From Asterias amurensis (lineage: Eukaryota; Echinodermata; Asteroidea; Forcipulatida; Asteriidae): DNA of 64,000 nt. A program made the translations under genes and the position numbers. Each line of letters opens with the position of its first letter. Within the stretch, counting starts at the first letter, position 1. Below the pieces are notes generated by a model. The model was not told where the DNA came from, did no database searches, and saw only the letters and a program-made list of their open reading frames with translations. Positions 12,635 to 58,592 of this stretch are shown here, piece after piece. The stretch lies in contig NC_092657.1 of NCBI RefSeq assembly GCF_032118995.1, forward strand, positions 6,340,391-6,404,390, given 5' to 3'.

Positions 12635-13510
<876 letters not shown>

Positions 13511-15604: not shown

Positions 15605-15705
15605 GTACGTCACAATGCTAACCCAAAACGAGGCGATGGGCGCAGCCACTGCAAGTGATGGGGGACGTGCGCCCATAGCCTCATTTTGGGTTAGAATTAT
15701 GACGT
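15605..15705. repeat. Palindrome at the amplification breakpoint
   Basis: CTAACCCAAAACGAGGC with GATGGGCGCA on the left is mirrored by TGCGCCCATAGCCTCATTTTGGGTTAG on the right (given in parts as a 27-base arm). The same palindrome precedes copy B (about 20217-20300). In every array unit only the right arm survives, fused to the sulfotransferase 3' fragment. Confidence 0.85.
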
Positions 15706-15806
15706 CATGCATAAATATTAAGAGAGGCGTATTAACAACATTACCAATGATGTATTCATCGAAGTAAACTGTATTCGTTTGTGTCGTTATTTTTATGCTA
15801 CAAAAG

Positions 15807-20878: not shown

Positions 20879-23800
20879 TATATATATATTTATTGACCAA
20901 ACCAACAGCGGACGAGCCGCCAATTACAGGAAAGGATACAAAACAATTAGAAATATTCATATAGCCTATATAAAAACAATCTGATATGTACAAAGTTAAC
21001 AATTAAAATATAATCATCTTAGGAAAGAAAATTAAAGCATACATTGAAGATTAAGTAAAATAAAATAGGGAACAGAAAACAGACCACCATGAACGACTGT
21101 GAAAATATATTTAAATTAAATTATAAACAGAATAAACGATAAAAAGACAAGGGAAAAAAAGAAGAAAAAAAAAATATATATATATATATAATATAAACAA
21201 ATCGATGTGAACAATATCAAATAAAATAAAACAAAACACTGTAAATACATGTATACATTAGTTACTGGAAGAGGATATGGCACGCAAAACCTGACCACGA
21301 AAAGAATTAAGAGAAGGGACTCCGAACACATCACAAGAACCATGGATACTATTATATGTCGAGGAAATCCTTGACAAAAAGCCACGCTTTGTCACATCCA
21401 CCTGATTCCTTGGCACATATAAGATGTGTTTAATAGACTGTCTAGTATTACGGTTAGGAACATGTAAGCCGAAGGGGTTGAACTCAGTGTTGCTAAAATG
21501 ATTGTGGAAAAATTTGTAGAGAAATAGACAGTCATTCAATATTCTTCTCTGTCTAAGTGGTGGAAGTCTGTACATTTTACATAGGTCAAGATAATCCAAG
21601 TTATAAATAGTGCCATTATTTAGTGTCCTATGAATAAATTTGAGAAAACGAAACTGAACTCCCTCTAGTCTATGTGCTTGATGGGCTGAAATAGAGTTAA
21701 ATACAATGGTACAAAAATCAAGATTAGGTCTGATGAGAGAACAAAAAAAGGTACGTAGAACATGCTCATTCTTTAAGGAGCGAAAGTTACGCCATACTAA
21801 ACCACTCGTGCGATTGGCTTTTTTGATAATAGTATTAACATGCGGAATGAAAGTGAGTCTGCTGTCAATAAAAATACCAAGATCTTTCTGGACATCAACA
21901 CGAGTAAGAATATTATCACCTAAGGTATAATCAAATTTGACAGGCTTCTTCTTAAGAGTCAGGGTTAAAATGCTACATTCGTTAACGTTAAGAAATAGAC
22001 GCCATGTTTTAGACCAGTCAAGAATTCTATCTAAGTCAGCCTGCAAAGAAATAGTATCGGCTGTGCAACCAATCTGACGAAAAACCTTTAGACCATCAGC
22101 ATAAAGTAAACATTTATTACTTAAACATTCAAGAAGATCGTTAACAAATAATGTAAATAAGAGAGGTCCTAGAATTGAACCCTGTGGAATTCCAGAGGGC
22201 ACTGTTTTCCATTCGGAAGAAAAACCATCCACAACTACTCTATGTTTTCTGCCAGTTAGATAACTTTGTATAACAAAATTAATACATTTGGATGAATATT
22301 GTAGGAGTTCAGTTTGTACAAAGGAAAATCATGGTTGACTCGATCAAATGCCTTGGAAAAATCAGTATATATAACATCTAACTGCTCTCTCTGATCAACA
22401 GCACGGTATGCCTCTAGTAAAAGTGCAGTAAGGTTTGTGGAACAACCCCTTCCAGAGACAAAACCGTGCTGTTGCTCAGAAATCGCAGGTCGAACATGGG
22501 AAAAAATCTGCTCACATAGTATTTTTTCATAAACCTTGGCTACCTGAGGGATTAATGAAATTGGCCTATAGTTAGAGACACTTGACTTTTTACCAGCCTT
22601 ATGGATAGGAACAAGGTTAGCAGTTTTCCAACTTGAAGGAAAGCATCCCTCCTTGGATGCTCTTGTGAAAATATACGATAAAGGACCACACAGGGCACCA
22701 GCACAGGAATTAAAAACAAAACCTGATACATTATCTGATCCACTAGCTCTAGAACAGTCAATATTGTTTAACTTTTTTAGAACATCAGATTCAGTTATTT
22801 GGATAGCAGGCATGGCATTCAAGTTAGCAGACTGAAGAGTAGGCATAGTCTCCGTTGCATTAGATTCATCAGGTGGTGGAAGATAGACAGACTGAAAAAA
22901 AGTCCATAAAAAGAGCCGTTTTGCTAGACGAATCAGTAGCTTCTAGACCTGAGGTTTCATGACGAAGAGTTGAAGGCAAGGCATGCCGGCGGGATCGAGC
23001 CTTAATAAAACTCCAAAAACGTTTTGGATTTTTACCAATGTCATCAGTGATTGATTGAAGATATGATGCATACTTAATCTTTACCAAATCAGTTCTTGAT
23101 TGCTGAAAAGATGCTATGTTCTCCGGAGTTGAATTGGACTTCTTGCGGCGAAATGCTCGTTCTTTGGCTCTTAGGGCAAAATGAACTTGTCCATCAAACC
23201 AAGGAGGTGAGGGACGTCGTGGACGGACAACATGGACAACATCGATGATGGCAGCTTCAACAAGATCATTGAAGAGAGATGTAGCATCATCAATATTGTC
23301 AGTGGCTTCGAGCAGATTCCAGGGAATGCACTCAAGTGTTCTGTTGAGGTCTTTTAAATCTGCTTTACGGAAGTTAAAAATGGGCCGACTGATAGGCTGT
23401 AAAACAGGCATTGAAGTATCATTGAAAAGAAAGCTCAATCTTATTGACTTGTGATCAGATTGAAAAAAGTCATCACCAGTTGTAGACGAAGCTATAGGAG
23501 GTTACTAGAAGTAAGGGCAAGGTCGAGAATGTTATCTCCTCTCGTGGAGCAAAAGTTTACTTGTTGCAAATTGTGAGCAGACATGACAGCATCAACAAAA
23601 ACATCATCAATCGTCGATCCACTTGAGACTGCCAGCTTACTTCTAGGGTTCCACTGTAAAGTAGGGAGATTGAAATCTCCAGCAATACAAATGTTATTGT
23701 AGTGGCTGGAAACAATAATAAAGGTGTCAGCCAGTGCCTCTAGTGGCCCAACTCTACTGTTCGGTGGCCTATAAAAAACACCAAGAAGCATCTTGTTGCG

Positions 23801-24633
23801 GCTAGACAGACGTACCTCAACCAATAACAGCTCCAGATCATTACGCTCGAAATCTTGCCTTCTACGGCATACAAAGTTATTGTGACAGCCTAGAAGTACA
23901 CGTCCTCCTCCGCGTCTGTTTACTCTGTCATTACGAAAGATGGTGTAGTTGGGGATATTTAACTCGGAATCCATCACATCAGTAGTGAGCCAAGTTTCAG
24001 TTAAAGCAAAGAAGTTGTAAAAGCCACCAGGTTGCAAATGAGCAACCAAGGAAGTGTGGAAAGAGTCAAGCTTATTTTTCAAACTTCTTTTATTTTGTAT
24101 GTACATCCATCTGGCATGTTGTATTTGGAGGGCTCCGGGTGAAGGTGTTTGTAGATGACTCATCAGATGGTGCTTCAGGTCCTGGATTAAGCTCGATGTC
24201 ACCAGAAAGAATAATGTTGAAGCGTGCAGTGGAGTTTGCATAATAGAGTGTACTGGAGAGCTTAATGTTGTACTTCACCCATTGATGAGTGGAGCTTGGT
24301 ACAACATAGCAGGATGATGACAAAGAAGGTGGCCTAGCAAGACTCCATGCTCCTGCATGACAATGCAGTTTCTCAGGCATGAAGAGCAGCTTGGGGAGTT
24401 GGATTTCATTTTATTGACCAGATTGATCAAAAACTTTCTGGAAAACACTGGAAATCTGAAAAGTGTTGACATGAAACTGATGATGAAATACACCAAAGTT
24501 GTCAGCAAGGGAACCTCTATCAAATGAAGTAAAATTCAAACAGGTTAGAGTGCTCAGAACTACCCAAAAGAGCAAACGAGTGAGAGCACAACGTGAAGCT
24601 TGTTGACTGGTCGCCATCATAGAAGCCATCATC
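20879..24633 (-). mobile_element. CR1-like LINE with 2A motif, inserted antisense in sulfotransferase copy B
   Basis: About 3.75 kb APE-type LINE read on the minus strand. 24411-24630: start MMATSQQ... with a signal-peptide-like LLFWVVLSTLACLNF-type core. 24177-24203: 2A-like GDIELNPGP. 23492-24170: endonuclease with LTETWL, GVFYRPPNS, AGDFNLP and RGDNILDLALT. 22256-22846: RT fingers and palm (SGSDNV, NYRPISLI, DFSKAFDRVNH). 21258-22232: GIPQGSILGPLLF, the catalytic box as YADG in place of YADD, and the C-terminal domain. Four frameshifts (about 24110, 23470, 22860, 22250), one in-frame stop (24411) and the D-to-G change show it is dead. Deleting it restores the sulfotransferase reading frame exactly, with no target-site duplication visible. 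The 3' end is an AT-rich (TA)n tail. Confidence 0.87.
24177..24203 (-). other. 2A-like ribosome-skipping motif in the LINE
   Basis: Reads G-D-I-E-L-N-P-G-P and fits the D(V/I)ExNPGP consensus of 2A peptides, at which the ribosome omits the Gly-Pro bond. It lies upstream of the endonuclease and downstream of a hydrophobic N-terminus, the architecture reported for echinoderm CR1-type LINEs. Activity here is inferred. Confidence 0.75.
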
Positions 24634-26750
24634 TGAATACATTCAGACAAAGTTGGGTATACAAAAGAAAGTGTCGTTCCCGTCGAGAAAAAACCGTCTT
24701 CCGTATAACAGTTCAGACAAATTTGATAACTACATGAGTCAGTTAAGTCAAGACTGCCCCCTTAAGTCAAGACTGCCCCCTTAAAGGCAGTGGACACTAT
24801 TGGTAATTACTCCAAATAATTATTAGCATAAACCTTACTTGGTAACGGGTAAATTGGAAGATAGTATAACACATGGATAAATCTGAAAAGTGTTGACATG
24901 AAACTGATGATGAAATACACCAAAGTTGTCAGCAAGGGAACCTCTATCACATGAAGTAAAATTCAAACAGGCTAGAGTGCTCAGAACTACCCAAAAGAGC
25001 AAAAGAGTGAGAGCACAACGTGAAGCTTGTTGACTGGTCGCCATCATAGAAGCCATCATCTGAATACATTCAGACAAAGTTGGGTATACAAAAGAAAGTG
25101 TCGTTCCCGTCGAGAAAAAACAGTCTTCCGTATAACAGTTCAGACAAATTTGATAACTACATGAGTCAGTTAAGTCAAGACTGCCCCCTTAAGTCAAGAC
25201 TGCCCCCATAAACCTTACTTGGTAACGGGTAAATTGGAAGATAGTATAACACATGGATAAATCTTAAAAAGTGTTGACATGAAACTGATGATGAAATACA
25301 CCAAAGTTGTCAGCAAGGGAACCTCTATCACATGAAGTAAAATTCAAACAGGCTAGAGTGCTCAGAACTACCCAAAAGAGCAAAAGAGTGAGAGCACAAC
25401 GTGAAGCTTGTTGACTGGTCGCCATCATAGAAGCCATCATCTGAATACATTCAGACAAAGTTGGGTATACAAAAGAAAGTGTCGTTCCCGTCGAGAAAAA
25501 ACAGTCTTCCGTATAACAGTTCAGACAAATTTGATAACTACATGAGTCAGTTAAGTCAAGACTGCCCCCTTAAGTCAAGACTGCCCCCATAAACCTTACT
25601 TGGTAACGGGTAAATTGGAAGATAGTATAACACATGGATAAATCTAAAAAAGTGTTGACATGAAACTGATGATGAAATACACCAAAGTTGTCAGCAAGGG
25701 AACCTCTATCACATGAAGTAAAATTCAAACAGGCTAGAGTGCTCAGAACTACCCAAAAGAGCAAAAGAGTGAGAGCACAACGTGAAGCTTGTTGACTGGT
25801 CGCCATCATAGAAGCCATCATCTGAATACATTCAGACAAAGTTGGGTATACAAAAGAAAGTGTCGTTCCCGTCGAGAAAAAACAGTCTTCCGTATAACAG
25901 TTCAGACAAATTTGATAACTACATGAGTCAGTTAAGTCAAGACTGCCCCCTTAAGTCAAGACTGCCCCCATAAACCTTACTTGGTAACGGGTAAATTGGA
26001 AGATAGTATAACACATGGATAAATCTAAAAAAGTGTTGACATGAAACTGATGATGAAATACACCAAAGTTGTCAGCAAGGGAACCTCTATCACATGAAGT
26101 AAAATTCAAACAGGCTAGAGTGCTCAGAACTACCCAAAAGAGCAAAAGAGTGAGAGCACAACGTGAAGCTTGTTGACTGGTCGCCATCATAGAAGCCATC
26201 ATCTGAATACATTCAGACAAAGTTGGGTATACAAAAGAAAGCGTCGTTCCCGTCGAGAAAAAACAGTCTTCCGTATAACAGTTCAGACAAATTTGATAAC
26301 TACATGAGTCAGTTAAGTCAAGACTGCCCCCTTAAGTCAAGACTGCCCCCTTAAAGGCAGTGGACACTATTGGTAATTACTCCAAATAATTATTAGCATA
26401 AACCTTACTTGGTAACGGGTAAATTGGAAGATAGTATAACACATGGATAAATCTGAAAAGTGTTGACATGAAACTGATGATGAAATACACCAAAGTTGTC
26501 AGCAAGGGAACCTCTATCACATGAAGTAAAATTCAAACAGGCTAGAGTGCTCAGAACTACCCAAAAGAGCAAACGAGTGAGAGCACAACGTGAAGCTTGT
26601 TGACTGGTCGCCATCATAGAAGCCATCATCTGAATACATTCAGACAAAGTTGGGTATACAAAAGAAAGTGTCGTTCCCGTCGAGAAAAACCAGTCTTCCG
26701 TATAACAGTTCAGACAAATTTGATAACTACATGAGTCAGTTAAGTCTCGT
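24453..26750. repeat. Sub-repeat array (381/427 bp units), leading block
   Basis: Phase marks recur at 24650, 25077, 25458, 25839, 26220 and 26647, giving periods 427, 381, 381, 381, 427. Each unit is LINE 5' end (~190 bp, antisense) + sulfotransferase 3' coding fragment (~120 bp) + a doubled AAGTCAAGACTGCCCCC + an F1-derived fragment (ATAAACCTTACTTGG...). The 427 bp form keeps 47 more bases of F1 left terminus (AAAGGCAGTGGACACTATTG...). The short form has lost them between flanking C-runs. The last three units match the end of the 1,923 bp unit, so this block ends in a truncated higher-order unit. Confidence 0.93.
24634..24760 (+). pseudogene. 3' remnant of sulfotransferase copy B
   Basis: Continues the exon from SEYIQTKLGIQKK to MSQLSQ after the LINE, then diverges into AAGACTGCCCCC direct repeats and a MITE fragment instead of the normal last helix. 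This fragment, with ~190 bp of adjacent LINE 5' end, is the founder of the sub-repeat. Confidence 0.85.
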
Positions 26751-26888
26751 GCGCCCATAGCCTCATTTTGGGTTAGAATTATGACGTCATGCATAAATAT
26801 TAAGAGAGGCGTATTAACAACATTACCAATGATGTATTCATCGAAGTAAACTGTATTCGTTTGTGTCGTTATTTTTATGCTACAAAAG

Positions 26889-27515
26889 GCTGGATGCACC
26901 AACTGGAAGACAGTATTAATGGTGATGGATGGATATCGGAATAGAACGGACGATATCACAGGACCAATGGCCCACGATTACTACGAGAAAAGGAGACTCA
27001 GCTCTTACAACCAAACGGAGCAAAAATACCGTCTGGAAACCTACACCAAGTTCACCGTCACACGGCATCCATTTGAACGTGCTCTATCAGCGTACGGAAA
27101 CAAGTTCGCAAACATGAACGTTTACAGAGGTTATCCGCCCTACCAAAAACTTGCCAGGTCTATCATGAAGAAGTTCAGGAAAAATGCAACGCCCGTGCAG
27201 CTGAAGACTGGCGAGAATATTACGTGGGTTGAGTGGGTTTCGTACCTCACTAAATCTCGCCCGGAAGAGTTTGACGTGCACTGGATGGAGTACTTTCAAC
27301 TATGTTCTCCGTGCAAAATAAACTACGACTACATTGGCAAATTGGACACCATTTCAGATGATTCTGAATACATTCAGACAAAGTTGGGTATACAAAAGAA
27401 AGTGTCGTTCCCGTCGAGAAAAACCAGTCTTCCGTATAACAGTTCAGACAAATTTGATAACTACATGAGTCAGTTAAGTCAAGACTGCCCCCTTAAGTCA
27501 AGACTGCCCCCATAA
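26889..27515 (+). pseudogene. Array copy 1 of sulfotransferase terminal exon
   Basis: Q-type copy (LQK, NWKT, NMNVYRG, SIMKK). Open from the acceptor through both PAPS motifs to MSQLSQ, then replaced by the array-specific tail DCPLKSRLPP and stop. It lacks the last ~20-25 residues including the YRLDFELFGY helix. There is no upstream exon within the unit. Confidence 0.85.
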
Positions 27516-28811
27516 ACCTTACTTGGTAACGGGTAAATTGGAAGATAGTATAACACATGGATAAATCTAAAAAAGTGTTGACATGAAACTGATGATGAAA
27601 TACACCAAAGTTGTCAGCAAGGGAACCTCTATCACATGAAGTAAAATTCAAACAGGCTAGAGTGCTCAGAACTACCCAAAAGAGCAAAAGAGTGAGAGCA
27701 CAACGTGAAGCTTGTTGACTGGTCGCCATCATAGAAGCCATCATCTGAATACATTCAGACAAAGTTGGGTATACAAAAGAAAGTGTCGTTCCCGTCGAGA
27801 AAAAACAGTCTTCCGTATAACAGTTCAGACAAATTTGATAACTACATGAGTCAGTTAAGTCAAGACTGCCCCCTTAAGTCAAGACTGCCCCCATAAACCT
27901 TACTTGGTAACGGGTAAATTGGAAGATAGTATAACACATGGATAAATCTAAAAAAGTGTTGACATGAAACTGATGATGAAATACACCAAAGTTGTCAGCA
28001 AGGGAACCTCTATCACATGAAGTAAAATTCAAACAGGCTAGAGTGCTCAGAACTACCCAAAAGAGCAAAAGAGTGAGAGCACAACGTGAAGCTTGTTGAC
28101 TGGTCGCCATCATAGAAGCCATCATCTGAATACATTCAGACAAAGTTGGGTATACAAAAGAAAGCGTCGTTCCCGTCGAGAAAAAACAGTCTTCCGTATA
28201 ACAGTTCAGACAAATTTGATAACTACATGAGTCAGTTAAGTCAAGACTGCCCCCTTAAGTCAAGACTGCCCCCTTAAAGGCAGTGGACACTATTGGTAAT
28301 TACTCCAAATAATTATTAGCATAAACCTTACTTGGTAACGGGTAAATTGGAAGATAGTATAACACATGGATAAATCTGAAAAGTGTTGACATGAAACTGA
28401 TGATGAAATACACCAAAGTTGTCAGCAAGGGAACCTCTATCACATGAAGTAAAATTCAAACAGGCTAAAGTGCTCAGAACTACCCAAAAGAGCAAACGAG
28501 TGAGAGCACAACGTGAAGCTTGTTGACTGGTCGCCATCATAGAAGCCATCATCTGAATACATTCAGACAAAGTTGGGTATACAAAAGAAAGTGTCGTTCC
28601 CGTCGAGAAAAACCAGTCTTCCGTATAACAGTTCAGACAAATTTGATAACTACATGAGTCAGTTAAGTCTCGTGCGCCCATAGCCTCATTTTGGGTTAGA
28701 ATTATGACGTCATGCATAAATATTAAGAGAGGCGTATTAACAACATTACCAATGATGTATTCATCGAAGTAAACTGTATTCGTTTGTGTCGTTATTTTTA
28801 TGCTACAAAAG

Positions 28812-29438
28812 GCTGGATGCACCAACTGGAAGACAGTATTAATGGTGATGGATGGATATCGGAATAGAACGGACGATATCACAGGACCAATGGCCCACGA
28901 TTACTACGAGAAAAGGAGACTCAGCTCTTACAACCAAACGGAGCAAAAATACCGTCTGGAAACCTACACCAAGTTCACCGTCACACGGCATCCATTTGAA
29001 CGTGCTCTATCAGCGTACGGAAACAAGTTCGCAAACATGAACGTTTACAGAGGTTATCCGCCCTACCAAAAACTTGCCAGGTCTATCATGAAGAAGTTCA
29101 GGAAAAATGCAACGCCCGTGCAGCTGAAGACTGGCGAGAATATTACGTGGGTTGAGTGGGTTTCGTACCTCACTAAATCTCGCCCGGAAGAGTTTGACGT
29201 GCACTGGATGGAGTACTTTCAACTATGTTCTCCGTGCAAAATAAACTACGACTACATTGGCAAATTGGACACCATTTCAGATGATTCTGAATACATTCAG
29301 ACAAAGTTGGGTATACAAAAGAAAGTGTCGTTCCCGTCGAGAAAAACCAGTCTTCCGTATAACAGTTCAGACAAATTTGATAACTACATGAGTCAGTTAA
29401 GTCAAGACTGCCCCCTTAAGTCAAGACTGCCCCCATAA
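28812..29438 (+). pseudogene. Array copy 2 of sulfotransferase terminal exon
   Basis: Q-type, same predicted protein as copy 1. The sub-repeat preceding it has a private GGCTAAAG change near 28467. Confidence 0.85.
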
Positions 29439-30734
29439 ACCTTACTTGGTAACGGGTAAATTGGAAGATAGTATAACACATGGATAAATCTAAAAAAGTG
29501 TTGACATGAAACTGATGATGAAATACACCAAAGTTGTCAGCAAGGGAACCTCTATCACATGAAGTAAAATTCAAACAGGCTAGAGTGCTCAGAACTACCC
29601 AAAAGAGCAAAAGAGTGAGAGCACAACGTGAAGCTTGTTGACTGGTCGCCATCATAGAAGCCATCATCTGAATACATTCAGACAAAGTTGGGTATACAAA
29701 AGAAAGTGTCGTTCCCGTCGAGAAAAAACAGTCTTCCGTATAACAGTTCAGACAAATTTGATAACTACATGAGTCAGTTAAGTCAAGACTGCCCCCTTAA
29801 GTCAAGACTGCCCCCATAAACCTTACTTGGTAACGGGTAAATTGGAAGATAGTATAACACATGGATAAATCTAAAAAAGTGTTGACATGAAACTGATGAT
29901 GAAATACACCAAAGTTGTCAGCAAGGGAACCTCTATCACATGAAGTAAAATTCAAACAGGCTAGAGTGCTCAGAACTACCCAAAAGAGCAAAAGAGTGAG
30001 AGCACAACGTGAAGCTTGTTGACTGGTCGCCATCATAGAAGCCATCATCTGAATACATTCAGACAAAGTTGGGTATACAAAAGAAAGCGTCGTTCCCGTC
30101 GAGAAAAAACAGTCTTCCGTATAACAGTTCAGACAAATTTGATAACTACATGAGTCAGTTAAGTCAAGACTGCCCCCTTAAGTCAAGACTGCCCCCTTAA
30201 AGGCAGTGGACACTATTGGTAATTACTCCAAATAATTATTAGCATAAACCTTACTTGGTAACGGGTAAATTGGAAGATAGTATAACACATGGATAAATCT
30301 GAAAAGTGTTGACATGAAACTGATGATGAAATACACCAAAGTTGTCAGCAAGGGAACCTCTATCACATGAAGTAAAATTCAAACAGGCTAGAGTGCTCAG
30401 AACTACCCAAAAGAGCAAACGAGTGAGAGCACAACGTGAAGCTTGTTGACTGGTCGCCATCATAGAAGCCATCATCTGAATACATTCAGACAAAGTTGGG
30501 TATACAAAAGAAAGTGTCGTTCCCGTCGAGAAAAACCAGTCTTCCGTATAACAGTTCAGACAAATTTGATAACTACATGAGTCAGTTAAGTCTCGTGCGC
30601 CCATAGCCTCATTTTGGGTTAGAATTATGACGTCATGCATAAATATTAAGAGAGGCGTATTAACAACATTACCAATGATGTATTCATCGAAGTAAACTGT
30701 ATTCGTTTGTGTCGTTATTTTTATGCTACAAAAG

Positions 30735-31361
30735 GCTGGATGCACCAACTGGAAGACAGTATTAATGGTGATGGATGGATATCGGAATAGAACGGACGAT
30801 ATCACAGGACCAATGGCCCACGATTACTACGAGAAAAGGAGACTCAGCTCTTACAACCAAACGGAGCAAAAATACCGTCTGGAAACCTACACCAAGTTCA
30901 CCGTCACACGGCATCCATTTGAACGTGCTCTATCAGCGTACGGAAACAAGTTCGCAAACATGAACGTTTACAGAGGTTATCCGCCCTACCAAAAACTTGC
31001 CAGGTCTATCATGAAGAAGTTCAGGAAAAATGCAACGCCCGTGCAGCTGAAGACTGGCGAGAATATTACGTGGGTTGAGTGGGTTTCGTACCTCACTAAA
31101 TCTCGCCCGGAAGAGTTTGACGTGCACTGGATGGAGTACTTTCAACTATGTTCTCCGTGCAAAATAAACTACGACTACATTGGCAAATTGGACACCATTT
31201 CAGATGATTCTGAATACATTCAGACAAAGTTGGGTATACAAAAGAAAGTGTCGTTCCCGTCGAGAAAAACCAGTCTTCCGTATAACAGTTCAGACAAATT
31301 TGATAACTACATGAGTCAGTTAAGTCAAGACTGCCCCCTTAAGTCAAGACTGCCCCCATAA
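30735..31361 (+). pseudogene. Array copy 3 of sulfotransferase terminal exon
   Basis: Q-type, same predicted protein as copies 1 and 2, with the DCPLKSRLPP tail. Confidence 0.85.
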
Positions 31362-32657
31362 ACCTTACTTGGTAACGGGTAAATTGGAAGATAGTATAAC
31401 ACATGGATAAATCTAAAAAAGTGTTGACATGAAACTGATGATGAAATACACCAAAGTTGTCAGCAAGGGAACCTCTATCACATGAAGTAAAATTCAAACA
31501 GGCTAGAGTGCTCAGAACTACCCAAAAGAGCAAAAGAGTGAGAGCACAACGTGAAGCTTGTTGACTGGTCGCCATCATAGAAGCCATCATCTGAATACAT
31601 TCAGACAAAGTTGGGTATACAAAAGAAAGTGTCGTTCCCGTCGAGAAAAAACAGTCTTCCGTATAACAGTTCAGACAAATTTGATAACTACATGAGTCAG
31701 TTAAGTCAAGACTGCCCCCTTAAGTCAAGACTGCCCCCATAAACCTTACTTGGTAACGGGTAAATTGGAAGATAGTATAACACATGGATAAATCTAAAAA
31801 AGTGTTGACATGAAACTGATGATGAAATACACCAAAGTTGTCAGCAAGGGAACCTCTATCACATGAAGTAAAATTCAAACAGGCTAGAGTGCTCAGAACT
31901 ACCCAAAAGAGCAAAAGAGTGAGAGCACAACGTGAAGCTTGTTGACTGGTCGCCATCATAGAAGCCATCATCTGAATACATTCAGACAAAGTTGGGTATA
32001 CAAAAGAAAGCGTCGTTCCCGTCGAGAAAAAACAGTCTTCCGTATAACAGTTCAGACAAATTTGATAACTACATGAGTCAGTTAAGTCAAGACTGCCCCC
32101 TTAAGTCAAGACTGCCCCCTTAAAGGCAGTGGACACTATTGGTAATTACTCCAAATAATTATTAGCATAAACCTTACTTGGTAACGGGTAAATTGGAAGA
32201 TAGTATAACACATGGATAAATCTGAAAAGTGTTGACATGAAACTGATGATGAAATACACCAAAGTTGTCAGCAAGGGAACCTCTATCACATGAAGTAAAA
32301 TTCAAACAGGCTAGAGTGCTCAGAACTACCCAAAAGAGCAAACGAGTGAGAGCACAACGTGAAGCTTGTTGACTGGTCGCCATCATAGAAGCCATCATCT
32401 GAATACATTCAGACAAAGTTGGGTATACAAAAGAAAGTGTCGTTCCCGTCGAGAAAAACCAGTCTTCCGTATAACAGTTCAGACAAATTTGATAACTACA
32501 TGAGTCAGTTAAGTCTCGTGCGCCCATAGCCTCATTTTGGGTTAGAATTATGACGTCATGCATAAATATTAAGAGAGGCGTATTAACAACATTATCAATG
32601 ATGTATTCATCGAAGTAAACTGTATTCGTTTGTGTCGTTATTTTTATGCTACACAAG

Positions 32658-33284
32658 GCTGGATGCACCAACTGGAAGGCAGTATTAATGGTGATGGATG
32701 GATATCGGAATAGAACGGACGATATCACAGGACCAATGGCCCACGATTACTACGAGAAAAGGAGACTCAGCTTTTACAACCAAACGGAGCAAAAATACCG
32801 TCTGGAAACCTACACCAAGTTCACCGTCACACGGCATCCATTTGAACGTGCTCTATCAGCGTACGGAAACAAGTTCGCAAACATTGACGTTTACAGAGGG
32901 TATCCGCCCTACCAAAAACTTGCCAGGTCTATCACGAAGAAGTTCAGGAAAAATGCAACGCCCGTGCAGCTGAAGACTGGCGAGAATATTACGTGGGTTG
33001 AGTGGGTTTCGTACCTCACTAAATCTCGCCCGGAAGAGTTTGACGTGCACTGGATGGAGTACTTTCAACTATGTTCTCCGTGCAAAATAAACTACGACTA
33101 CATTGGCAAATTGGACACCATTTCAGATGATTCTGAATACATTCAGACAAAGTTGGGTATACAAAAGAAAGTGTCGTTCCCGTCGAGAAAAACCAGTCTT
33201 CCGTATAACAGTTCAGACAAATTTGATAACTACATGAGTCAGTTAAGTCAAGACTGCCCCCTTAAGTCAAGACTGCCCCCATAA
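32658..33284 (+). pseudogene. Array copy 4 of sulfotransferase terminal exon (H-type)
   Basis: H-type: LHK, NWKA, LSFYNQ, NIDVYRG, SITKK. It shares these differences with the LINE-split copy B but has the array tail, indicating sequence exchange between copy B and the array. Confidence 0.85.
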
Positions 33285-34579
33285 ACCTTACTTGGTAACG
33301 GGTAAATTGGAAGATAGTATAACACATGGATAAATCTAAAAAAGTGTTGACATGAAACTGATGATGAAATACACCAAAGTTGTCAGCAAGGGAACCTCTA
33401 TCACATGAAGTAAAATTCAAACAGGCTAGAGTGCTCAGAACTACCCAAAAGAGCAAAAGAGTGAGAGCACAACGTGAAGCTTGTTGACTGGTCGCCATCA
33501 TAGAAGCCATCATCTGAATACATTCAGACAAAGTTGGGTATACAAAAGAAAGTGTCGTTCCCGTCGAGAAAAAACAGTCTTCCGTATAACAGTTCAGACA
33601 AATTTGATAACTACATGAGTCAGTTAAGTCAAGACTGCCCCCTTAAGTCAAGACTGCCCCCATAAACCTTACTTGGTAACGGGTAAATTGGAAGATAGTA
33701 TAACACATGGATAAATCTAAAAAAGTGTTGACATGAAACTGATGATGAAATACACCAAAGTTGTCAGCAAGGGAACCTCTATCACATGAAGTAAAATTCA
33801 AACAGGCTAGAGTGCTCAGAACTACCCAAAAGAGCAAAAGAGTGAGAGCACAACGTGAAGCTTGTTGACTGGTCGCCATCATAGAAGCCATCATCTGAAT
33901 ACATTCAGACAAAGTTGGGTATACAAAAGAAAGCGTCGTTCCCGTCGAGAAAAAACAGTCTTCCGTATAACAGTTCAGACAAATTTGATAACTACATGAG
34001 TCAGTTAAGTCAAGACTGCCCCTTAAGTCAAGACTGCCCCCTTAAAGGCAGTGGACACTATTGGTAATTACTCCAAATAATTATTAGCATAAACCTTACT
34101 TGGTAACGGGTAAATTGGAAGATAGTATAACACATGGATAAATCTGAAAAGTGTTGACATGAAACTGATGATGAAATACACCAAAGTTGTCAGCAAGGGA
34201 ACCTCTATCACATGAAGTAAAATTCAAACAGGCTAGAGTGCTCAGAACTACCCAAAAGAGCAAACGAGTGAGAGCACAACGTGAAGCTTGTTGACTGGTC
34301 GCCATCATAGAAGCCATCATCTGAATACATTCAGACAAAGTTGGGTATACAAAAGAAAGTGTCGTTCCCGTCGAGAAAAACCAGTCTTCCGTATAACAGT
34401 TCAGACAAATTTGATAACTACATGAGTCAGTTAAGTCTCGTGCGCCCATAGCCTCATTTTGGGTTAGAATTATGACGTCATGCATAAATATTAAGAGAGG
34501 CGTATTAACAACATTACCAATGATGTATTCATCGAAGTAAACTGTATTCGTTTGTGTCGTTATTTTTATGCTACAAAAG

Positions 34580-35206
34580 GCTGGATGCACCAACTGGAAG
34601 ACAGTATTAATGGTGATGGATGGATATCGGAATAGAACGGACGATATCACAGGACCAATGGCCCACGATTACTACGAGAAAAGGAGACTCAGCTCTTACA
34701 ACCAAACGGAGCAAAAATACCGTCTGGAAACCTACACCAAGTTCACCGTCACACGGCATCCATTTGAACGTGCTCTATCAGCGTACGGAAACAAGTTCGC
34801 AAACATGAACGTTTACAGAGGTTATCCGCCCTACCAAAAACTTGCCAGGTCTATCATGAAGAAGTTCAGGAAAAATGCAACGCCCGTGCAGCTGAAGACT
34901 GGCGAGAATATTACGTGGGTTGAGTGGGTTTCGTACCTCACTAAATCTCGCCCGGAAGAGTTTGACGTGCACTGGATGGAGTACTTTCAACTATGTTCTC
35001 CGTGCAAAATAAACTACGACTACATTGGCAAATTGGACACCATTTCAGATGATTCTGAATACATTCAGACAAAGTTGGGTATACAAAAGAAAGTGTCGTT
35101 CCCGTCGAGAAAAACCAGTCTTCCGTATAACAGTTCAGACAAATTTGATAACTACATGAGTCAGTTAAGTCAAGACTGCCCCCTTAAGTCAAGACTGCCC
35201 CCATAA
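34580..35206 (+). pseudogene. Array copy 5 of sulfotransferase terminal exon
   Basis: Q-type; its 3' sub-repeat carries AAACCCTACTTGG instead of AAACCTTACTTGG, a mark shared with copies 7 and 8. Confidence 0.85.
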
Positions 35207-36502
35207 ACCCTACTTGGTAACGGGTAAATTGGAAGATAGTATAACACATGGATAAATCTAAAAAAGTGTTGACATGAAACTGATGATGAAATACACCAAA
35301 GTTGTCAGCAAGGGAACCTCTATCACATGAAGTAAAATTCAAACAGGCTAGAGTGCTCAGAACTACCCAAAAGAGCAAAAGAGTGAGAGCACAACGTGAA
35401 GCTTGTTGACTGGTCGCCATCATAGAAGCCATCATCTGAATACATTCAGACAAAGTTGGGTATACAAAAGAAAGTGTCGTTCCCGTCGAGAAAAAACAGT
35501 CTTCCGTATAACAGTTCAGACAAATTTGATAACTACATGAGTCAGTTAAGTCAAGACTGCCCCCTTAAGTCAAGACTGCCCCCATAAACCTTACTTGGTA
35601 ACGGGTAAATTGGAAGATAGTATAACACATGGATAAATCTAAAAAAGTGTTGACATGAAACTGATGATGAAATACACCAAAGTTGTCAGCAAGGGAACCT
35701 CTATCACATGAAGTAAAATTCAAACAGGCTAGAGTGCTCAGAACTACCCAAAAGAGCAAAAGAGTGAGAGCACAACGTGAAGCTTGTTGACTGGTCGCCA
35801 TCATAGAAGCCATCATCTGAATACATTCAGACAAAGTTGGGTATACAAAAGAAAGCGTCGTTCCCGTCGAGAAAAAACAGTCTTCCGTATAACAGTTCAG
35901 ACAAATTTGATAACTACATGAGTCAGTTAAGTCAAGACTGCCCCCTTAAGTCAAGACTGCCCCCTTAAAGGCAGTGGACACTATTGGTAATTACTCCAAA
36001 TAATTATTAGCATAAACCTTACTTGGTAACGGGTAAATTGGAAGATAGTATAACACATGGATAAATCTGAAAAGTGTTGACATGAAACTGATGATGAAAT
36101 ACACCAAAGTTGTCAGCAAGGGAACCTCTATCACATGAAGTAAAATTCAAACAGGCTAGAGTGCTCAGAACTACCCAAAAGAGCAAACGAGTGAGAGCAC
36201 AACGTGAAGCTTGTTGACTGGTCGCCATCATAGAAGCCATCATCTGAATACATTCAGACAAAGTTGGGTATACAAAAGAAAGTGTCGTTCCCGTCGAGAA
36301 AAACCAGTCTTCCGTATAACAGTTCAGACAAATTTGATAACTACATGAGTCAGTTAAGTCTCGTGCGCCCATAGCCTCATTTTGGGTTAGAATTATGACG
36401 TCATGCATAAATATTAAGAGAGGCGTATTAACAACATTATCAATGATGTATTCATCGAAGTAAACTGTATTCGTTTGTGTCGTTATTTTTATGCTACACA
36501 AG

Positions 36503-37129
36503 GCTGGATGCACCAACTGGAAGGCAGTATTAATGGTGATGGATGGATATCGGAATAGAACGGACGATATCACAGGACCAATGGCCCACGATTACTACGA
36601 GAAAAGGAGACTCAGCTTTTACAACCAAACGGAGCAAAAATACCGTCTGGAAACCTACACCAAGTTCACCGTCACACGGCATCCATTTGAACGTGCTCTA
36701 TCAGCGTACGGAAACAAGTTCGCAAACATTGACGTTTACAGAGGGTATCCGCCCTACCAAAAACTTGCCAGGTCTATCACGAAGAAGTTCAGGAAAAATG
36801 CAACGCCCGTGCAGCTGAAGACTGGCGAGAATATTACGTGGGTTGAGTGGGTTTCGTACCTCACTAAATCTCGCCCGGAAGAGTTTGACGTGCACTGGAT
36901 GGAGTACTTTCAACTATGTTCTCCGTGCAAAATAAACTACGACTACATTGGCAAATTGGACACCATTTCAGATGATTCTGAATACATTCAGACAAAGTTG
37001 GGTATACAAAAGAAAGTGTCGTTCCCGTCGAGAAAAACCAGTCTTCCGTATAACAGTTCAGACAAATTTGATAACTACATGAGTCAGTTAAGTCAAGACT
37101 GCCCCCTTAAGTCAAGACTGCCCCCATAA
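36503..37129 (+). pseudogene. Array copy 6 of sulfotransferase terminal exon (H-type)
   Basis: H-type and identical in predicted protein to copy 4. The 4-5 and 6-7 pairs look like a duplicated two-unit block. Confidence 0.85.
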
Positions 37130-38425
37130 ACCTTACTTGGTAACGGGTAAATTGGAAGATAGTATAACACATGGATAAATCTAAAAAAGTGTTGACATGA
37201 AACTGATGATGAAATACACCAAAGTTGTCAGCAAGGGAACCTCTATCACATGAAGTAAAATTCAAACAGGCTAGAGTGCTCAGAACTACCCAAAAGAGCA
37301 AAAGAGTGAGAGCACAACGTGAAGCTTGTTGACTGGTCGCCATCATAGAAGCCATCATCTGAATACATTCAGACAAAGTTGGGTATACAAAAGAAAGTGT
37401 CGTTCCCGTCGAGAAAAAACAGTCTTCCGTATAACAGTTCAGACAAATTTGATAACTACATGAGTCAGTTAAGTCAAGACTGCCCCCTTAAGTCAAGACT
37501 GCCCCCATAAACCTTACTTGGTAACGGGTAAATTGGAAGATAGTATAACACATGGATAAATCTAAAAAAGTGTTGACATGAAACTGATGATGAAATACAC
37601 CAAAGTTGTCAGCAAGGGAACCTCTATCACATGAAGTAAAATTCAAACAGGCTAGAGTGCTCAGAACTACCCAAAAGAGCAAAAGAGTGAGAGCACAACG
37701 TGAAGCTTGTTGACTGGTCGCCATCATAGAAGCCATCATCTGAATACATTCAGACAAAGTTGGGTATACAAAAGAAAGCGTCGTTCCCGTCGAGAAAAAA
37801 CAGTCTTCCGTATAACAGTTCAGACAAATTTGATAACTACATGAGTCAGTTAAGTCAAGACTGCCCCCTTAAGTCAAGACTGCCCCCTTAAAGGCAGTGG
37901 ACACTATTGGTAATTACTCCAAATAATTATTAGCATAAACCTTACTTGGTAACGGGTAAATTGGAAGATAGTATAACACATGGATAAATCTGAAAAGTGT
38001 TGACATGAAACTGATGATGAAATACACCAAAGTTGTCAGCAAGGGAACCTCTATCACATGAAGTAAAATTCAAACAGGCTAGAGTGCTCAGAACTACCCA
38101 AAAGAGCAAACGAGTGAGAGCACAACGTGAAGCTTGTTGACTGGTCGCCATCATAGAAGCCATCATCTGAATACATTCAGACAAAGTTGGGTATACAAAA
38201 GAAAGTGTCGTTCCCGTCGAGAAAAACCAGTCTTCCGTATAACAGTTCAGACAAATTTGATAACTACATGAGTCAGTTAAGTCTCGTGCGCCCATAGCCT
38301 CATTTTGGGTTAGAATTATGACGTCATGCATAAATATTAAGAGAGGCGTATTAACAACATTACCAATGATGTATTCATCGAAGTAAACTGTATTCGTTTG
38401 TGTCGTTATTTTTATGCTACAAAAG

Positions 38426-39052
38426 GCTGGATGCACCAACTGGAAGACAGTATTAATGGTGATGGATGGATATCGGAATAGAACGGACGATATCACAGGA
38501 CCAATGGCCCACGATTACTACGAGAAAAGGAGACTCAGCTCTTACAACCAAACGGAGCAAAAATACCGTCTGGAAACCTACACCAAGTTCACCGTCACAC
38601 GGCATCCATTTGAACGTGCTCTATCAGCGTACGGAAACAAGTTCGCAAACATGAACGTTTACAGAGGTTATCCGCCCTACCAAAAACTTGCCAGGTCTAT
38701 CATGAAGAAGTTCAGGAAAAATGCAACGCCCGTGCAGCTGAAGACTGGCGAGAATATTACGTGGGTTGAGTGGGTTTCGTACCTCACTAAATCTCGCCCG
38801 GAAGAGTTTGACGTGCACTGGATGGAGTACTTTCAACTATGTTCTCCGTGCAAAATAAACTACGACTACATTGGCAAATTGGACACCATTTCAGATGATT
38901 CTGAATACATTCAGACAAAGTTGGGTATACAAAAGAAAGTGTCGTTCCCGTCGAGAAAAACCAGTCTTCCGTATAACAGTTCAGACAAATTTGATAACTA
39001 CATGAGTCAGTTAAGTCAAGACTGCCCCCTTAAGTCAAGACTGCCCCCATAA
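38426..39052 (+). pseudogene. Array copy 7 of sulfotransferase terminal exon
   Basis: Q-type with the AAACCCTACTTGG mark downstream, like copy 5. Confidence 0.85.
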
Positions 39053-40348
39053 ACCCTACTTGGTAACGGGTAAATTGGAAGATAGTATAACACATGGATA
39101 AATCTAAAAAAGTGTTGACATGAAACTGATGATGAAATACACCAAAGTTGTCAGCAAGGGAACCTCTATCACATGAAGTAAAATTCAAACAGGCTAGAGT
39201 GCTCAGAACTACCCAAAAGAGCAAAAGAGTGAGAGCACAACGTGAAGCTTGTTGACTGGTCGCCATCATAGAAGCCATCATCTGAATACATTCAGACAAA
39301 GTTGGGTATACAAAAGAAAGTGTCGTTCCCGTCGAGAAAAAACAGTCTTCCGTATAACAGTTCAGACAAATTTGATAACTACATGAGTCAGTTAAGTCAA
39401 GACTGCCCCCTTAAGTCAAGACTGCCCCCATAAACCTTACTTGGTAACGGGTAAATTGGAAGATAGTATAACACATGGATAAATCTAAAAAAGTGTTGAC
39501 ATGAAACTGATGATGAAATACACCAAAGTTGTCAGCAAGGGAACCTCTATCACATGAAGTAAAATTCAAACAGGCTAGAGTGCTCAGAACTACCCAAAAG
39601 AGCAAAAGAGTGAGAGCACAACGTGAAGCTTGTTGACTGGTCGCCATCATAGAAGCCATCATCTGAATACATTCAGACAAAGTTGGGTATACAAAAGAAA
39701 GCGTCGTTCCCGTCGAGAAAAAACAGTCTTCCGTATAACAGTTCAGACAAATTTGATAACTACATGAGTCAGTTAAGTCAAGACTGCCCCCTTAAGTCAA
39801 GACTGCCCCCTTAAAGGCAGTGGACACTATTGGTAATTACTCCAAATAATTATTAGCATAAACCTTACTTGGTAACGGGTAAATTGGAAGATAGTATAAC
39901 ACATGGATAAATCTGAAAAGTGTTGACATGAAACTGATGATGAAATACACCAAAGTTGTCAGCAAGGGAACCTCTATCACATGAAGTAAAATTCAAACAG
40001 GCTAGAGTGCTCAGAACTACCCAAAAGAGCAAACGAGTGAGAGCACAACGTGAAGCTTGTTGACTGGTCGCCATCATAGAAGCCATCATCTGAATACATT
40101 CAGACAAAGTTGGGTATACAAAAGAAAGTGTCGTTCCCGTCGAGAAAAACCAGTCTTCCGTATAACAGTTCAGACAAATTTGATAACTACATGAGTCAGT
40201 TAAGTCTCGTGCGCCCATAGCCTCATTTTGGGTTAGAATTATGACGTCATGCATAAATATTAAGAGAGGCGTATTAACAACATTACCAATGATGTATTCA
40301 TCGAAGTAAACTGTATTCGTTTGTGTCGTTATTTTTATGCTACAAAAG

Positions 40349-40975
40349 GCTGGATGCACCAACTGGAAGACAGTATTAATGGTGATGGATGGATATCGGA
40401 ATAGAACGGACGATATCACAGGACCAATGGCCCACGATTACTACGAGAAAAGGAGACTCAGCTCTTACAACCAAACGGAGCAAAAATACCGTCTGGAAAC
40501 CTACACCAAGTTCACCGTCACACGGCATCCATTTGAACGTGCTCTATCAGCGTACGGAAACAAGTTCGCAAACATGAACGTTTACAGAGGTTATCCGCCC
40601 TACCAAAAACTTGCCAGGTCTATCATGAAGAAGTTCAGGAAAAATGCAACGCCCGTGCAGCTGAAGACTGGCGAGAATATTACGTGGGTTGAGTGGGTTT
40701 CGTACCTCACTAAATCTCGCCCGGAAGAGTTTGACGTGCACTGGATGGAGTACTTTCAACTATGTTCTCCGTGCAAAATAAACTACGACTACATTGGCAA
40801 ATTGGACACCATTTCAGATGATTCTGAATACATTCAGACAAAGTTGGGTATACAAAAGAAAGTGTCGTTCCCGTCGAGAAAAACCAGTCTTCCGTATAAC
40901 AGTTCAGACAAATTTGATAACTACATGAGTCAGTTAAGTCAAGACTGCCCCCTTAAGTCAAGACTGCCCCCATAA
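40349..40975 (+). pseudogene. Array copy 8 of sulfotransferase terminal exon
   Basis: Q-type with the AAACCCTACTTGG mark and a further private base (CCAACGTTGTC near 41066) in its first sub-repeat. Confidence 0.85.
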
Positions 40976-42271
40976 ACCCTACTTGGTAACGGGTAAATTG
41001 GAAGATAGTATAACACATGGATAAATCTAAAAAAGTGTTGACATGAAACTGATGATGAAATACACCAACGTTGTCAGCAAGGGAACCTCTATCACATGAA
41101 GTAAAATTCAAACAGGCTAGAGTGCTCAGAACTACCCAAAAGAGCAAAAGAGTGAGAGCACAACGTGAAGCTTGTTGACTGGTCGCCATCATAGAAGCCA
41201 TCATCTGAATACATTCAGACAAAGTTGGGTATACAAAAGAAAGTGTCGTTCCCGTCGAGAAAAAACAGTCTTCCGTATAACAGTTCAGACAAATTTGATA
41301 ACTACATGAGTCAGTTAAGTCAAGACTGCCCCCTTAAGTCAAGACTGCCCCCATAAACCTTACTTGGTAACGGGTAAATTGGAAGATAGTATAACACATG
41401 GATAAATCTAAAAAAGTGTTGACATGAAACTGATGATGAAATACACCAAAGTTGTCAGCAAGGGAACCTCTATCACATGAAGTAAAATTCAAACAGGCTA
41501 GAGTGCTCAGAACTACCCAAAAGAGCAAAAGAGTGAGAGCACAACGTGAAGCTTGTTGACTGGTCGCCATCATAGAAGCCATCATCTGAATACATTCAGA
41601 CAAAGTTGGGTATACAAAAGAAAGCGTCGTTCCCGTCGAGAAAAAACAGTCTTCCGTATAACAGTTCAGACAAATTTGATAACTACATGAGTCAGTTAAG
41701 TCAAGACTGCCCCCTTAAGTCAAGACTGCCCCCTTAAAGGCAGTGGACACTATTGGTAATTACTCCAAATAATTATTAGCATAAACCTTACTTGGTAACG
41801 GGTAAATTGGAAGATAGTATAACACATGGATAAATCTGAAAAGTGTTGACATGAAACTGATGATGAAATACACCAAAGTTGTCAGCAAGGGAACCTCTAT
41901 CACATGAAGTAAAATTCAAACAGGCTAGAGTGCTCAGAACTACCCAAAAGAGCAAACGAGTGAGAGCACAACGTGAAGCTTGTTGACTGGTCGCCATCAT
42001 AGAAGCCATCATCTGAATACATTCAGACAAAGTTGGGTATACAAAAGAAAGTGTCGTTCCCGTCGAGAAAAACCAGTCTTCCGTATAACAGTTCAGACAA
42101 ATTTGATAACTACATGAGTCAGTTAAGTCTCGTGCGCCCATAGCCTCATTTTGGGTTAGAATTATGACGTCATGCATAAATATTAAGAGAGGCGTATTAA
42201 CAACATTACCAATGATGTATTCATCGAAGTAAACTGTATTCGTTTGTGTCGTTATTTTTATGCTACAAAAG

Positions 42272-42898
42272 GCTGGATGCACCAACTGGAAGACAGTATT
42301 AATGGTGATGGATGGATATCGGAATAGAACGGACGATATCACAGGACCAATGGCCCACGATTACTACGAGAAAAGGAGACTCAGCTCTTACAACCAAACG
42401 GAGCAAAAATACCGTCTGGAAACCTACACCAAGTTCACCGTCACACGGCATCCATTTGAACGTGCTCTATCAGCGTACGGAAACAAGTTCGCAAACATGA
42501 ACGTTTACAGAGGTTATCCGCCCTACCAAAAACTTGCCAGGTCTATCATGAAGAAGTTCAGGAAAAATGCAACGCCCGTGCAGCTGAAGACTGGCGAGAA
42601 TATTACGTGGGTTGAGTGGGTTTCGTACCTCACTAAATCTCGCCCGGAAGAGTTTGACGTGCACTGGATGGAGTACTTTCAACTATGTTCTCCGTGCAAA
42701 ATAAACTACGACTACATTGGCAAATTGGACACCATTTCAGATGATTCTGAATACATTCAGACAAAGTTGGGTATACAAAAGAAAGTGTCGTTCCCGTCGA
42801 GAAAAACCAGTCTTCCGTATAACAGTTCAGACAAATTTGATAACTACATGAGTCAGTTAAGTCAAGACTGCCCCCTTAAGTCAAGACTGCCCCCATAA
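42272..42898 (+). pseudogene. Array copy 9 of sulfotransferase terminal exon
   Basis: Q-type, without the CCCTACTTGG mark. Last unit before the copy with a normal C-terminus. Confidence 0.85.
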
Positions 42899-44194
42899 AC
42901 CTTACTTGGTAACGGGTAAATTGGAAGATAGTATAACACATGGATAAATCTAAAAAAGTGTTGACATGAAACTGATGATGAAATACACCAAAGTTGTCAG
43001 CAAGGGAACCTCTATCACATGAAGTAAAATTCAAACAGGCTAGAGTGCTCAGAACTACCCAAAAGAGCAAAAGAGTGAGAGCACAACGTGAAGCTTGTTG
43101 ACTGGTCGCCATCATAGAAGCCATCATCTGAATACATTCAGACAAAGTTGGGTATACAAAAGAAAGTGTCGTTCCCGTCGAGAAAAAACAGTCTTCCGTA
43201 TAACAGTTCAGACAAATTTGATAACTACATGAGTCAGTTAAGTCAAGACTGCCCCCTTAAGTCAAGACTGCCCCCATAAACCTTACTTGGTAACGGGTAA
43301 ATTGGAAGATAGTATAACACATGGATAAATCTAAAAAAGTGTTGACATGAAACTGATGATGAAATACACCAAAGTTGTCAGCAAGGGAACCTCTATCACA
43401 TGAAGTAAAATTCAAACAGGCTAGAGTGCTCAGAACTACCCAAAAGAGCAAAAGAGTGAGAGCACAACGTGAAGCTTGTTGACTGGTCGCCATCATAGAA
43501 GCCATCATCTGAATACATTCAGACAAAGTTGGGTATACAAAAGAAAGCGTCGTTCCCGTCGAGAAAAAACAGTCTTCCGTATAACAGTTCAGACAAATTT
43601 GATAACTACATGAGTCAGTTAAGTCAAGACTGCCCCCTTAAGTCAAGACTGCCCCCTTAAAGGCAGTGGACACTATTGGTAATTACTCCAAATAATTATT
43701 AGCATAAACCTTACTTGGTAACGGGTAAATTGGAAGATAGTATAACACATGGATAAATCTGAAAAGTGTTGACATGAAACTGATGATGAAATACACCAAA
43801 GTTGTCAGCAAGGGAACCTCTATCACATGAAGTAAAATTCAAACAGGCTAGAGTGCTCAGAACTACCCAAAAGAGCAAACGAGTGAGAGCACAACGTGAA
43901 GCTTGTTGACTGGTCGCCATCATAGAAGCCATCATCTGAATACATTCAGACAAAGTTGGGTATACAAAAGAAAGTGTCGTTCCCGTCGAGAAAAACCAGT
44001 CTTCCGTATAACAGTTCAGACAAATTTGATAACTACATGAGTCAGTTAAGTCTCGTGCGCCCATAGCCTCATTTTGGGTTAGAATTATGACGTCATGCAT
44101 AAATATTAAGAGAGGCGTATTAACAACATTACCAATGATGTATTCATCGAAGTAAACTGTATTCGTTTGTGTCGTTATTTTTATGCTACAAAAG

Positions 44195-44866: not shown

Positions 44867-44935
44867 AAACAGCGTGGGTCCAATTGTCAATACGCCGCAT
44901 CTACCCTTCTTTGGGTGGACTGGAGATAACGCTAA

Positions 44936-45498: not shown

Positions 45499-45499
45499 C

Positions 45500-56637: not shown

Positions 56638-57210
<573 letters not shown>

Positions 57211-58124: not shown

Positions 58125-58592
<468 letters not shown>

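What the first reader, a model, noticed from the sequence alone, without database searches (positions are those of the whole stretch)
24453..44182. A higher-order satellite built from a coding exon, a LINE 5' end and a MITE
Nine 1,923 bp units, each with three 381/427 bp sub-repeats, make a nested array like centromeric higher-order repeats. The monomer is chimeric: sulfotransferase coding sequence + F1 MITE fragment + CR1-like LINE 5' end. Position-specific marks within a unit recur across units. Founder junctions are still visible next to the array (LINE insertion at 20.9-24.6 kb), so the birth of a satellite can be read step by step.
Basis: seen in the sequence. Interest (0 to 1): 0.85.

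Follow-up and report, generated by a model that had tools for sequence, protein, structure and literature searches.

The report
Young nested tandem array beside gene
In what appears to be the northern Pacific sea star, a duplicated last exon of a sulfotransferase gene, broken by a mobile element, has grown into a 20-kilobase repeat array whose starting pieces and joints still lie beside it, so the birth of a complex repeat can be read step by step.

Summary
The array is real. At 24453-44797 lie six leading monomers (M0-M5), nine 1,923-bp units (one 1,922), each = sulfotransferase last exon + three monomers, and a complete exon, B. A contig length equals the published N90 of the Asterias amurensis HiFi assembly. 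The tail/hairpin joint occurs 10 times, all here. (1) Each unit starts at the loop edge of a hairpin MITE, a missed fourth component. (2) The MITE head was probably not inserted: of 29 non-array copies scored, the resident MITE ~0.7 kb downstream ranks first, so a deletion probably fused it to the exon tail. (3) One unequal crossover between exon B's tail and M2's tail predicts the unit; u2, u3 and u9 match at all 1,923 bases. u4/u6 share an exon tract mostly of founder-A type and u5=u7: a later two-unit duplication. Units differ by 0.074% outside that tract, published heterozygosity is 0.96%, so copy number probably still varies. It is a young, single-locus composite macrosatellite beside a gene: a new member of a known kind, unusually legible.

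The parts
13722..13892 (+). upstream exon of the sulfotransferase gene g1 (57 aa of it); the only copy in the window
   Evidence: (tblastn, unfiltered, E up to 1); the paralog on contig C17 has the same two-exon order (L029 5678-5845 and 8006-8677)
15577..15732 (.). hairpin MITE (stem 15577-15645 with 15666-15732 in the centroid fold) just upstream of the last exon of g1
   Evidence: inverted match, genome copies, fold
15807..16478 (+). last exon of g1, open Sulfotransfer_2 reading frame
20270..20879 (+). founder copy A: most of the hairpin right arm + 5' part of the duplicated last exon
   Evidence: (98.4% to copy B over 610 bp)
20880..24631 (-). LINE inserted in exon A (5' end near 24621, then ~10 nt of uncertain origin); reading frame broken into pieces
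   Evidence: RVT_1 and endonuclease domains in separate pieces
24632..24753 (+). 3' part (tail) of exon A, directly after the LINE
24743..24784 (+). 19-bp duplication across the exon-tail/MITE-flank joint
24781..24876 (+). head of a TTAA-flanked MITE, first copy in the array (right end approximate)
24453..26752 (+). left block: six monomers M0-M5 (LINE 5' end + exon tail + MITE head), ending with the tail/hairpin joint
26753..44058 (+). nine higher-order units u1-u9 (1,923 bp; u4 1,922): hairpin arm + LINE-free exon + monomers of M3, M4 and M5 type
44059..44870 (+). copy B: hairpin right arm + complete last exon with stop codon
45501..45888 (+). resident MITE downstream of B, best-scoring non-array match to the array's MITE head

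Best explanation
This is a young composite macrosatellite with higher-order structure, built in place from one duplicated terminal exon and its immediate flanks. Proposed order. (1) The last exon of gene g1, with the hairpin MITE before it and part of the 3' flank, was duplicated 4.6 kb downstream without the upstream exon (shown by homology). (2) A LINE inserted in that exon in one lineage, A (shown). (3) In that lineage a deletion of about 700 bp fused the exon tail to the resident downstream MITE, and a 19-bp duplication followed (inferred). (4) A tandem duplication between the MITE head and the LINE 5' end, at a few bases of similar sequence, made the 427-bp monomer; a 46-bp deletion made the 381-bp form; exchange within the short array gave M0-M5 (products shown, steps inferred). 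(5) The tail of M5 was joined, with one extra base, to the loop edge of the hairpin MITE of a LINE-free copy, B, giving A-M0..M5-B (junction shown; a break or template switch at the hairpin tip is inferred). (6) One unequal crossover between exon B's tail and M2's tail created the 1,923-bp unit [exon-M3-M4-M5] (predicted product matches 3 of 9 units exactly; mechanism inferred). (7) Further unequal exchange raised this to nine units, including a two-unit step [u4 u5][u6 u7] after u4's exon had acquired a tract mostly of A type (inferred). No function is shown; it is most likely neutral, unstable DNA downstream of a working gene.
For: Step 1: the upstream exon occurs once in the window, the last exon 12 times (g1, A, B, nine units); A's left flank and B's right flank both match g1's flanks. 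Step 2: exon homology stops at column 610 (20879) and resumes at column 611 (24632); two other copies of the LINE 5' end stop at positions equal to 24617 and 24621 and have no exon. Step 3: of 29 non-array MITE matches scored, the local one ranks first (139 bits, next 132); the seven-base flank plus MITE start occurs 14 times in the assembly: 11 array, the local MITE, one on C4, one on C19, and the last two align less well to the array head (scores 142 and 147 against 165). Step 5: the retained sequence begins at the position of 15666, the innermost base pair of the centroid hairpin. Step 6: exon B followed by the sequence after M2's tail gives 1,923 bp, identical to u2, u3 and u9; the two tails differ only at exon column 672, so the exchange lies 3' of it. 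Step 7: u4 and u6 share eight exon differences, seven also in A; u5 and u7 are identical.
Against: Monomer marks conflict (one groups M0 with M5, another M1-M5, another M0-M4), so serial duplication alone is not enough and conversion must be assumed. Exon B is closer to g1 (3 of 732 columns differ) than to A (12 of 732), so B may be, or may have been converted by, a g1-type copy rather than the LINE-free allele of A. A's differences at columns 14, 22 and 174 are absent from u4/u6, and column 252 is private to u4/u6, so the tract is not a plain copy of today's A. The local MITE matches the array head at 92% with several indels, and the ACTCC variant that they share is found at 107 places in the assembly, 95 of them neither array nor local MITE, so it carries little weight. 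Only 40 of 3,258 candidate MITE places were scored. Exact identity between predicted and real units is also expected if edges and interior are homogenised, so fixes the repeat's end points, not its age. Copy number rests on one assembly.
Confidence: 0.72

Rival explanations
1. Amplification through an excised circle: a 1,923-bp (or two-unit) extrachromosomal circle was copied by rolling circle and reinserted.
For: Units are nearly identical (mean 1.17 differences per pair outside columns 74-414); circles of satellite repeats are reported in human cells (PMC3225859, search listing and start of abstract only).
Against: Both ends of the array are colinear with neighbouring founder sequence (M0-M2 on the left, complete exon B on the right), which reinsertion of a circle would not by itself give; the marks of u4 and u6 with u5=u7 fit a two-unit duplication in place, although a two-unit circle is not excluded.
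Confidence: 0.12
2. Assembly artefact: the copy number is inflated or deflated, or the unit order is wrong.
For: u2, u3 and u9 are identical, as are u5 and u7; the library was fragmented to about 15 kb (PMC10625585, passages), shorter than the 20-kb array.
Against: u4 and u6 carry eight internal marks about 8 kb from either array edge, so accurate 15-kb reads could tie both edges to them; u1, u4 and u8 have private differences. The chimeric tail/hairpin joint is present at 10 assembled places. No reads were seen.
Confidence: 0.1
3. A selected array of alternative last exons: each unit has a splice acceptor and an open frame, and could be joined to the upstream exon of g1 to make sulfotransferase forms with a new C-terminus.
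For: Nine of nine units have an open 221-codon frame, and nine of nine match Sulfotransfer_2 over its cut-off (profile 13-232 or 14-232 of 252).
Against: The unit frame loses about 25 terminal residues that g1 and B keep and that the C17 paralog also has in similar form; the units are too alike to add diversity; open frames in a very young array need no selection. No transcript data.
Confidence: 0.05

Closest known systems
Composite satellite DNA monomers (review 'Satellite DNAs rising from the transposon graveyards', PMC12628747; abstract, passages and its section on graveyards read)
   Same: A monomer made of pieces of several mobile elements; the review calls the origin of such monomers an open question and proposes shuffled mobile-element loci as the source.
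   Different: Here the source locus is still adjacent and lies beside a gene, not in a heterochromatic graveyard; one part is a protein-coding exon; apart from the LINE the pieces appear to come from one stretch of about 1.5 kb.
Human megasatellites and tandem arrays with genes or exons (BMC Genomics 2008, PMC2588610; passages read)
   Same: Kilobase units that hold gene parts or mobile elements; a MaLR/LTR6a array there was also explained by monomer formation, an insertion, then higher-order expansion and unequal crossing over.
   Different: The unit here itself contains a nested 381/427-bp array plus an exon, and the progenitor junctions flank the array.
Higher-order repeats of alpha-satellite type (recalled; related papers only as search listings)
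   Same: Monomers of distinct type in fixed order inside a repeated larger unit, with units much more alike than monomers.
   Different: One locus of nine units beside a gene; monomers alternate with a 732-bp exon-bearing stretch; no centromeric role shown or tested.

Membership tests
Higher-order tandem repeat | fixed order of distinguishable monomers repeated as a larger unit | tested here: met
   monomer signatures recur by position in 9 of 9 units, with one private base each in u1 and u8
Higher-order tandem repeat | units much more alike than the monomers within a unit | tested here: met
   units differ by a mean of 1.17 sites outside columns 74-414 and 4.28 overall; the three monomer types of a unit differ at several of 16 variable columns in ~300
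Centromeric satellite | large arrays at centromeres, bound by the centromeric histone | not testable with these tools
   one ~20-kb locus at 6.36 Mb of a 22.56-Mb contig; no chromatin data
Composite satellite monomer | monomer with pieces of more than one mobile element | tested here: met
   LINE 5' end, TTAA-flanked MITE head, and in the unit also a hairpin MITE arm
Composite satellite monomer | abundant or dispersed family in the genome | tested here: not met
   joint found only at this locus; LINE 5' end elsewhere twice, without exon
Tandem gene array | each unit holds a complete gene | tested here: not met
   units lack the upstream exon and the true 3' end of the last exon

The most novel reading that the evidence does not exclude
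The locus is a satellite caught at birth: a LINE-carrying and a LINE-free allele of one exon were fused head to tail by a break at the tip of a hairpin MITE, and a single unequal crossover in the exon tail then produced the higher-order unit. Short alleles (A-M0..M5-B, about 17.3 kb shorter) and other unit numbers still segregate in the species.
Probability: 0.33. Interest if true: 0.65.

Novelty: new member of a known kind. Interest (0 to 1): 0.46.

Why it matters
How composite, higher-order satellites start is usually lost because old arrays erase their founders; a recent review states that the origin of composite monomers is an open question (PMC12628747, section read). Here the source gene, the founder exon, the LINE, the hairpin MITE, the likely MITE donor and the joints lie within about 33 kb (13.7-45.9 kb), and the units differ less than published allelic divergence, so each step, and the number of units, can be tested in living populations by long reads or PCR.

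Tried and rejected
Independent insertion of the MITE into the exon: not my first choice, because the best-scoring match to head and flank is the local MITE. The two other places with the same flank (C4, C19) were fetched and aligned less well. A shared MITE variant that I first took as diagnostic proved common: 107 places, of which 11 are the array and 1 the local MITE; I no longer lean on it and lowered the main confidence slightly (0.75 to 0.72) and the novel case (0.35 to 0.33) for that reason.

Crossover with other tails: B's tail with M0, M1, M3 or M4 gives units of 2,731, 2,304, 1,542 or 1,161 bp, not 1,923.

Further unit copies in the next 10 kb on either side: only MITE-head matches in L027 and L028 (unit u2 as query; one search showed a list cut at 30 rows). 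The first exon search left out window hits between 24500 and 44000; it was repeated without that filter with the same result.

Satellite literature on Asterias: one search for papers holding 'sea star', 'satellite DNA', 'tandem repeats' and 'Asterias' together found none; one search of one library is not proof of absence.

A first selection estimate failed because of a wrong reading frame (one search ended in an error after printing the unit differences) and was redone.

Caveat on counts: the whole-genome DNA search skips very common words and scores only the best candidates (39 of 4,444, 39 of 1,290), and neither of those calls listed the array's own exons; absence claims rest.
Full report
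What the window is. The window is bases 6340391-6404390 of contig C10 of a 491,506,623-base assembly in 23 contigs. Contig C19 is 15,767,093 bases long, which is the scaffold N90 length printed for the Asterias amurensis assembly of PMC10625585 (22 scaffolds, 491,537,102 bases, PacBio HiFi from ~15-kb fragments, hifiasm; passages read). The totals differ by about 30 kb and the contig number by one.

Observation. TRF and a word count confirm the array. There are 33 LINE-derived monomers; the first six (M0-M5) have spacings 427, 381, 381, 381, 427; then spacings 1115, 381, 427 come nine times, one of these being 426. Nine units run from 26753 to 44058, eight of 1,923 bp and one of 1,922. Each unit consists of the right arm of a hairpin MITE, exon-bearing sequence without the LINE (732 bp in all), and three monomers whose marks are those of M3, M4 and M5; u1 and u8 have one private base each in a monomer. 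The repeat homology ends inside a complete exon, B, at about 44797.

The parts. The gene g1 (exon 13722-13892, last exon 15807-16478) encodes a Sulfotransfer_2 protein (Pfam PF03567, E 2e-53, profile 2-252 of 252). A paralog on contig C17 has the same two-exon layout, and the last exons differ with dN 0.20 and dS 0.66, so g1 looks like a constrained gene. The family gives 45 matches in the assembly, 12 of them in this window: g1, A, B and the nine units. A, B and the units have no upstream exon. In nine of nine units the frame is open for 221 codons but loses the true end of the protein. The hairpin MITE before the exon folds with a z-score of -12.7 (stem 15577-15645 with 15666-15732); in a search with 842 bases of g1, 67 of 70 matches were to this element.

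Where the chimera occurs. The tail/hairpin joint, with up to two mismatches, occurs at 10 places in the assembly, all here. The LINE 5' end gives 35 matches: 33 here, one at C10:20461068 and one at C2:30044108. Those two end at points equal to window positions 24621 and 24617 and continue in other sequence, which places the LINE's 5' end there and leaves ~10 nt before exon A resumes unexplained.

The MITE is probably local. The array's MITE head gave 40 scored matches out of 3,258 candidates: 11 in the array at 100%, then the resident MITE at window 45496-45596 (92%, 139 bits), then 28 others at 132 bits or less. The seven bases before the MITE start, together with the start, occur at 14 places: 11 array, the local MITE, and one each on C4 and C19. 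The C4 and C19 copies align with scores 142 and 147 against 165 for the local copy. A reading with one deletion of about 700 bp between exon tail and this MITE follows. Against it: 92% identity with several indels is more divergence than the exon copies show, and a variant shared by array and local MITE also occurs at 95 other places. A second diagnostic pattern did not complete.

How the unit arose. Exon B's tail and M2's tail differ at one position, exon column 672. If B's exon is followed by whatever comes after M2's tail, the product is 1,923 bp and identical to u2, u3 and u9 at every base; u1, u5 and u7 differ by one base, u8 by two, u6 by eight, u4 by eight and one gap. Crossovers with the tails of M0, M1, M3 or M4 give the wrong length. 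So the repeat's two end points lie in the exon tail, as unequal homologous exchange predicts. This does not date the event, because edges and interior may have been homogenised.

The other joint. M5's tail is followed by one extra base and then by sequence from position 15666 of g1's hairpin onward. In the centroid fold 15666 is the innermost base pair, so the joint is at the loop edge; in the minimum-energy fold a few more weak pairs lie inside the loop. That a hairpin-tip break caused the joint is inferred from position alone.

Later history. u4 and u6 share eight exon differences from the rest; seven are also in founder A (columns 74, 133, 158, 364, 365, 379, 414) and one (252) is their own; A's changes at 14, 22 and 174 are not in them. 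With the C17 paralog as outgroup, A's state is derived at 133, 158, 364 and 414, and ancestral at 365 and 379, so the tract belongs to the A lineage but is not a plain copy of today's A. u5 and u7 are identical and share a mark with u8 alone. The economical reading is one A-lineage tract, then a 3,846-bp duplication [u4 u5][u6 u7], then a 1-bp loss in u4. Mean pairwise difference between units (36 pairs) is 4.28 sites overall and 1.17 sites (0.074%) outside columns 74-414. Heterozygosity of the species is given as 0.96% (PMC11090083, passage). Unless conversion alone explains it, the array is younger than typical allelic divergence and should vary between individuals.

What stays open. B is nearer to g1 (3 of 732 columns) than to A (12 of 732), so 'B is the LINE-free allele of A' is only one option; a g1-derived or g1-converted copy is another. 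Marks in M0-M5 conflict with a simple tree.

Comparison. Kilobase tandem arrays with gene pieces or mobile elements, and higher-order expansion after an insertion, are known in human DNA (PMC2588610, passages). Composite satellite monomers are known and their origin is called open (PMC12628747, abstract, passages and one section). In seven literature searches no listed title or abstract start mentions this locus; several lists were cut, and most subscription papers are not in that library. I file it as a new member of a known kind whose value is legibility.

Noticed in passing
20850-20900 and 24605-24655: At the LINE's 5' junction the ten bases ATCATCTGAA are the reverse complement of the ten bases before its 3' junction (TTCAGATGAT); six of them are target sequence, so this may be chance or a fold-back repair trace (letters).
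   Followed up: no
16697-19752: A second LINE-like stretch in broken frames lies between g1 and copy A: one frame has a zf-RVT match, the other scanned frame has none at E 0.001.
   Followed up: partly
12625-13512, 56642-57209, 58118-58592: Long microsatellites: ~0.9 kb of a four-base repeat and two ~0.5-kb three-base repeats.
   Followed up: no
8387-8664: A 133-bp, two-copy tandem repeat that matches an end of the same TTAA-flanked MITE family: another small MITE-derived tandem start.
   Followed up: no
44990-45110 and 46510-46660: Two stretches downstream of B share sequence in inverted-repeat form, apparently another short mobile element (read by eye; raised word counts).
   Followed up: no
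2447-2503 and 51669-51725: Two 22-bp minisatellites with closely similar units at distant places in the window.
   Followed up: no
1391-1957: Open frame on the minus strand that reads like an amino-acid transporter (judged from the letters, no search made), which suggests genic surroundings.
   Followed up: no
L004 (C10:20459568-20462725): The best other copy of the LINE 5' end is a 158-bp piece that lies a few hundred bases from two MITEs of the same family as in the array.
   Followed up: no
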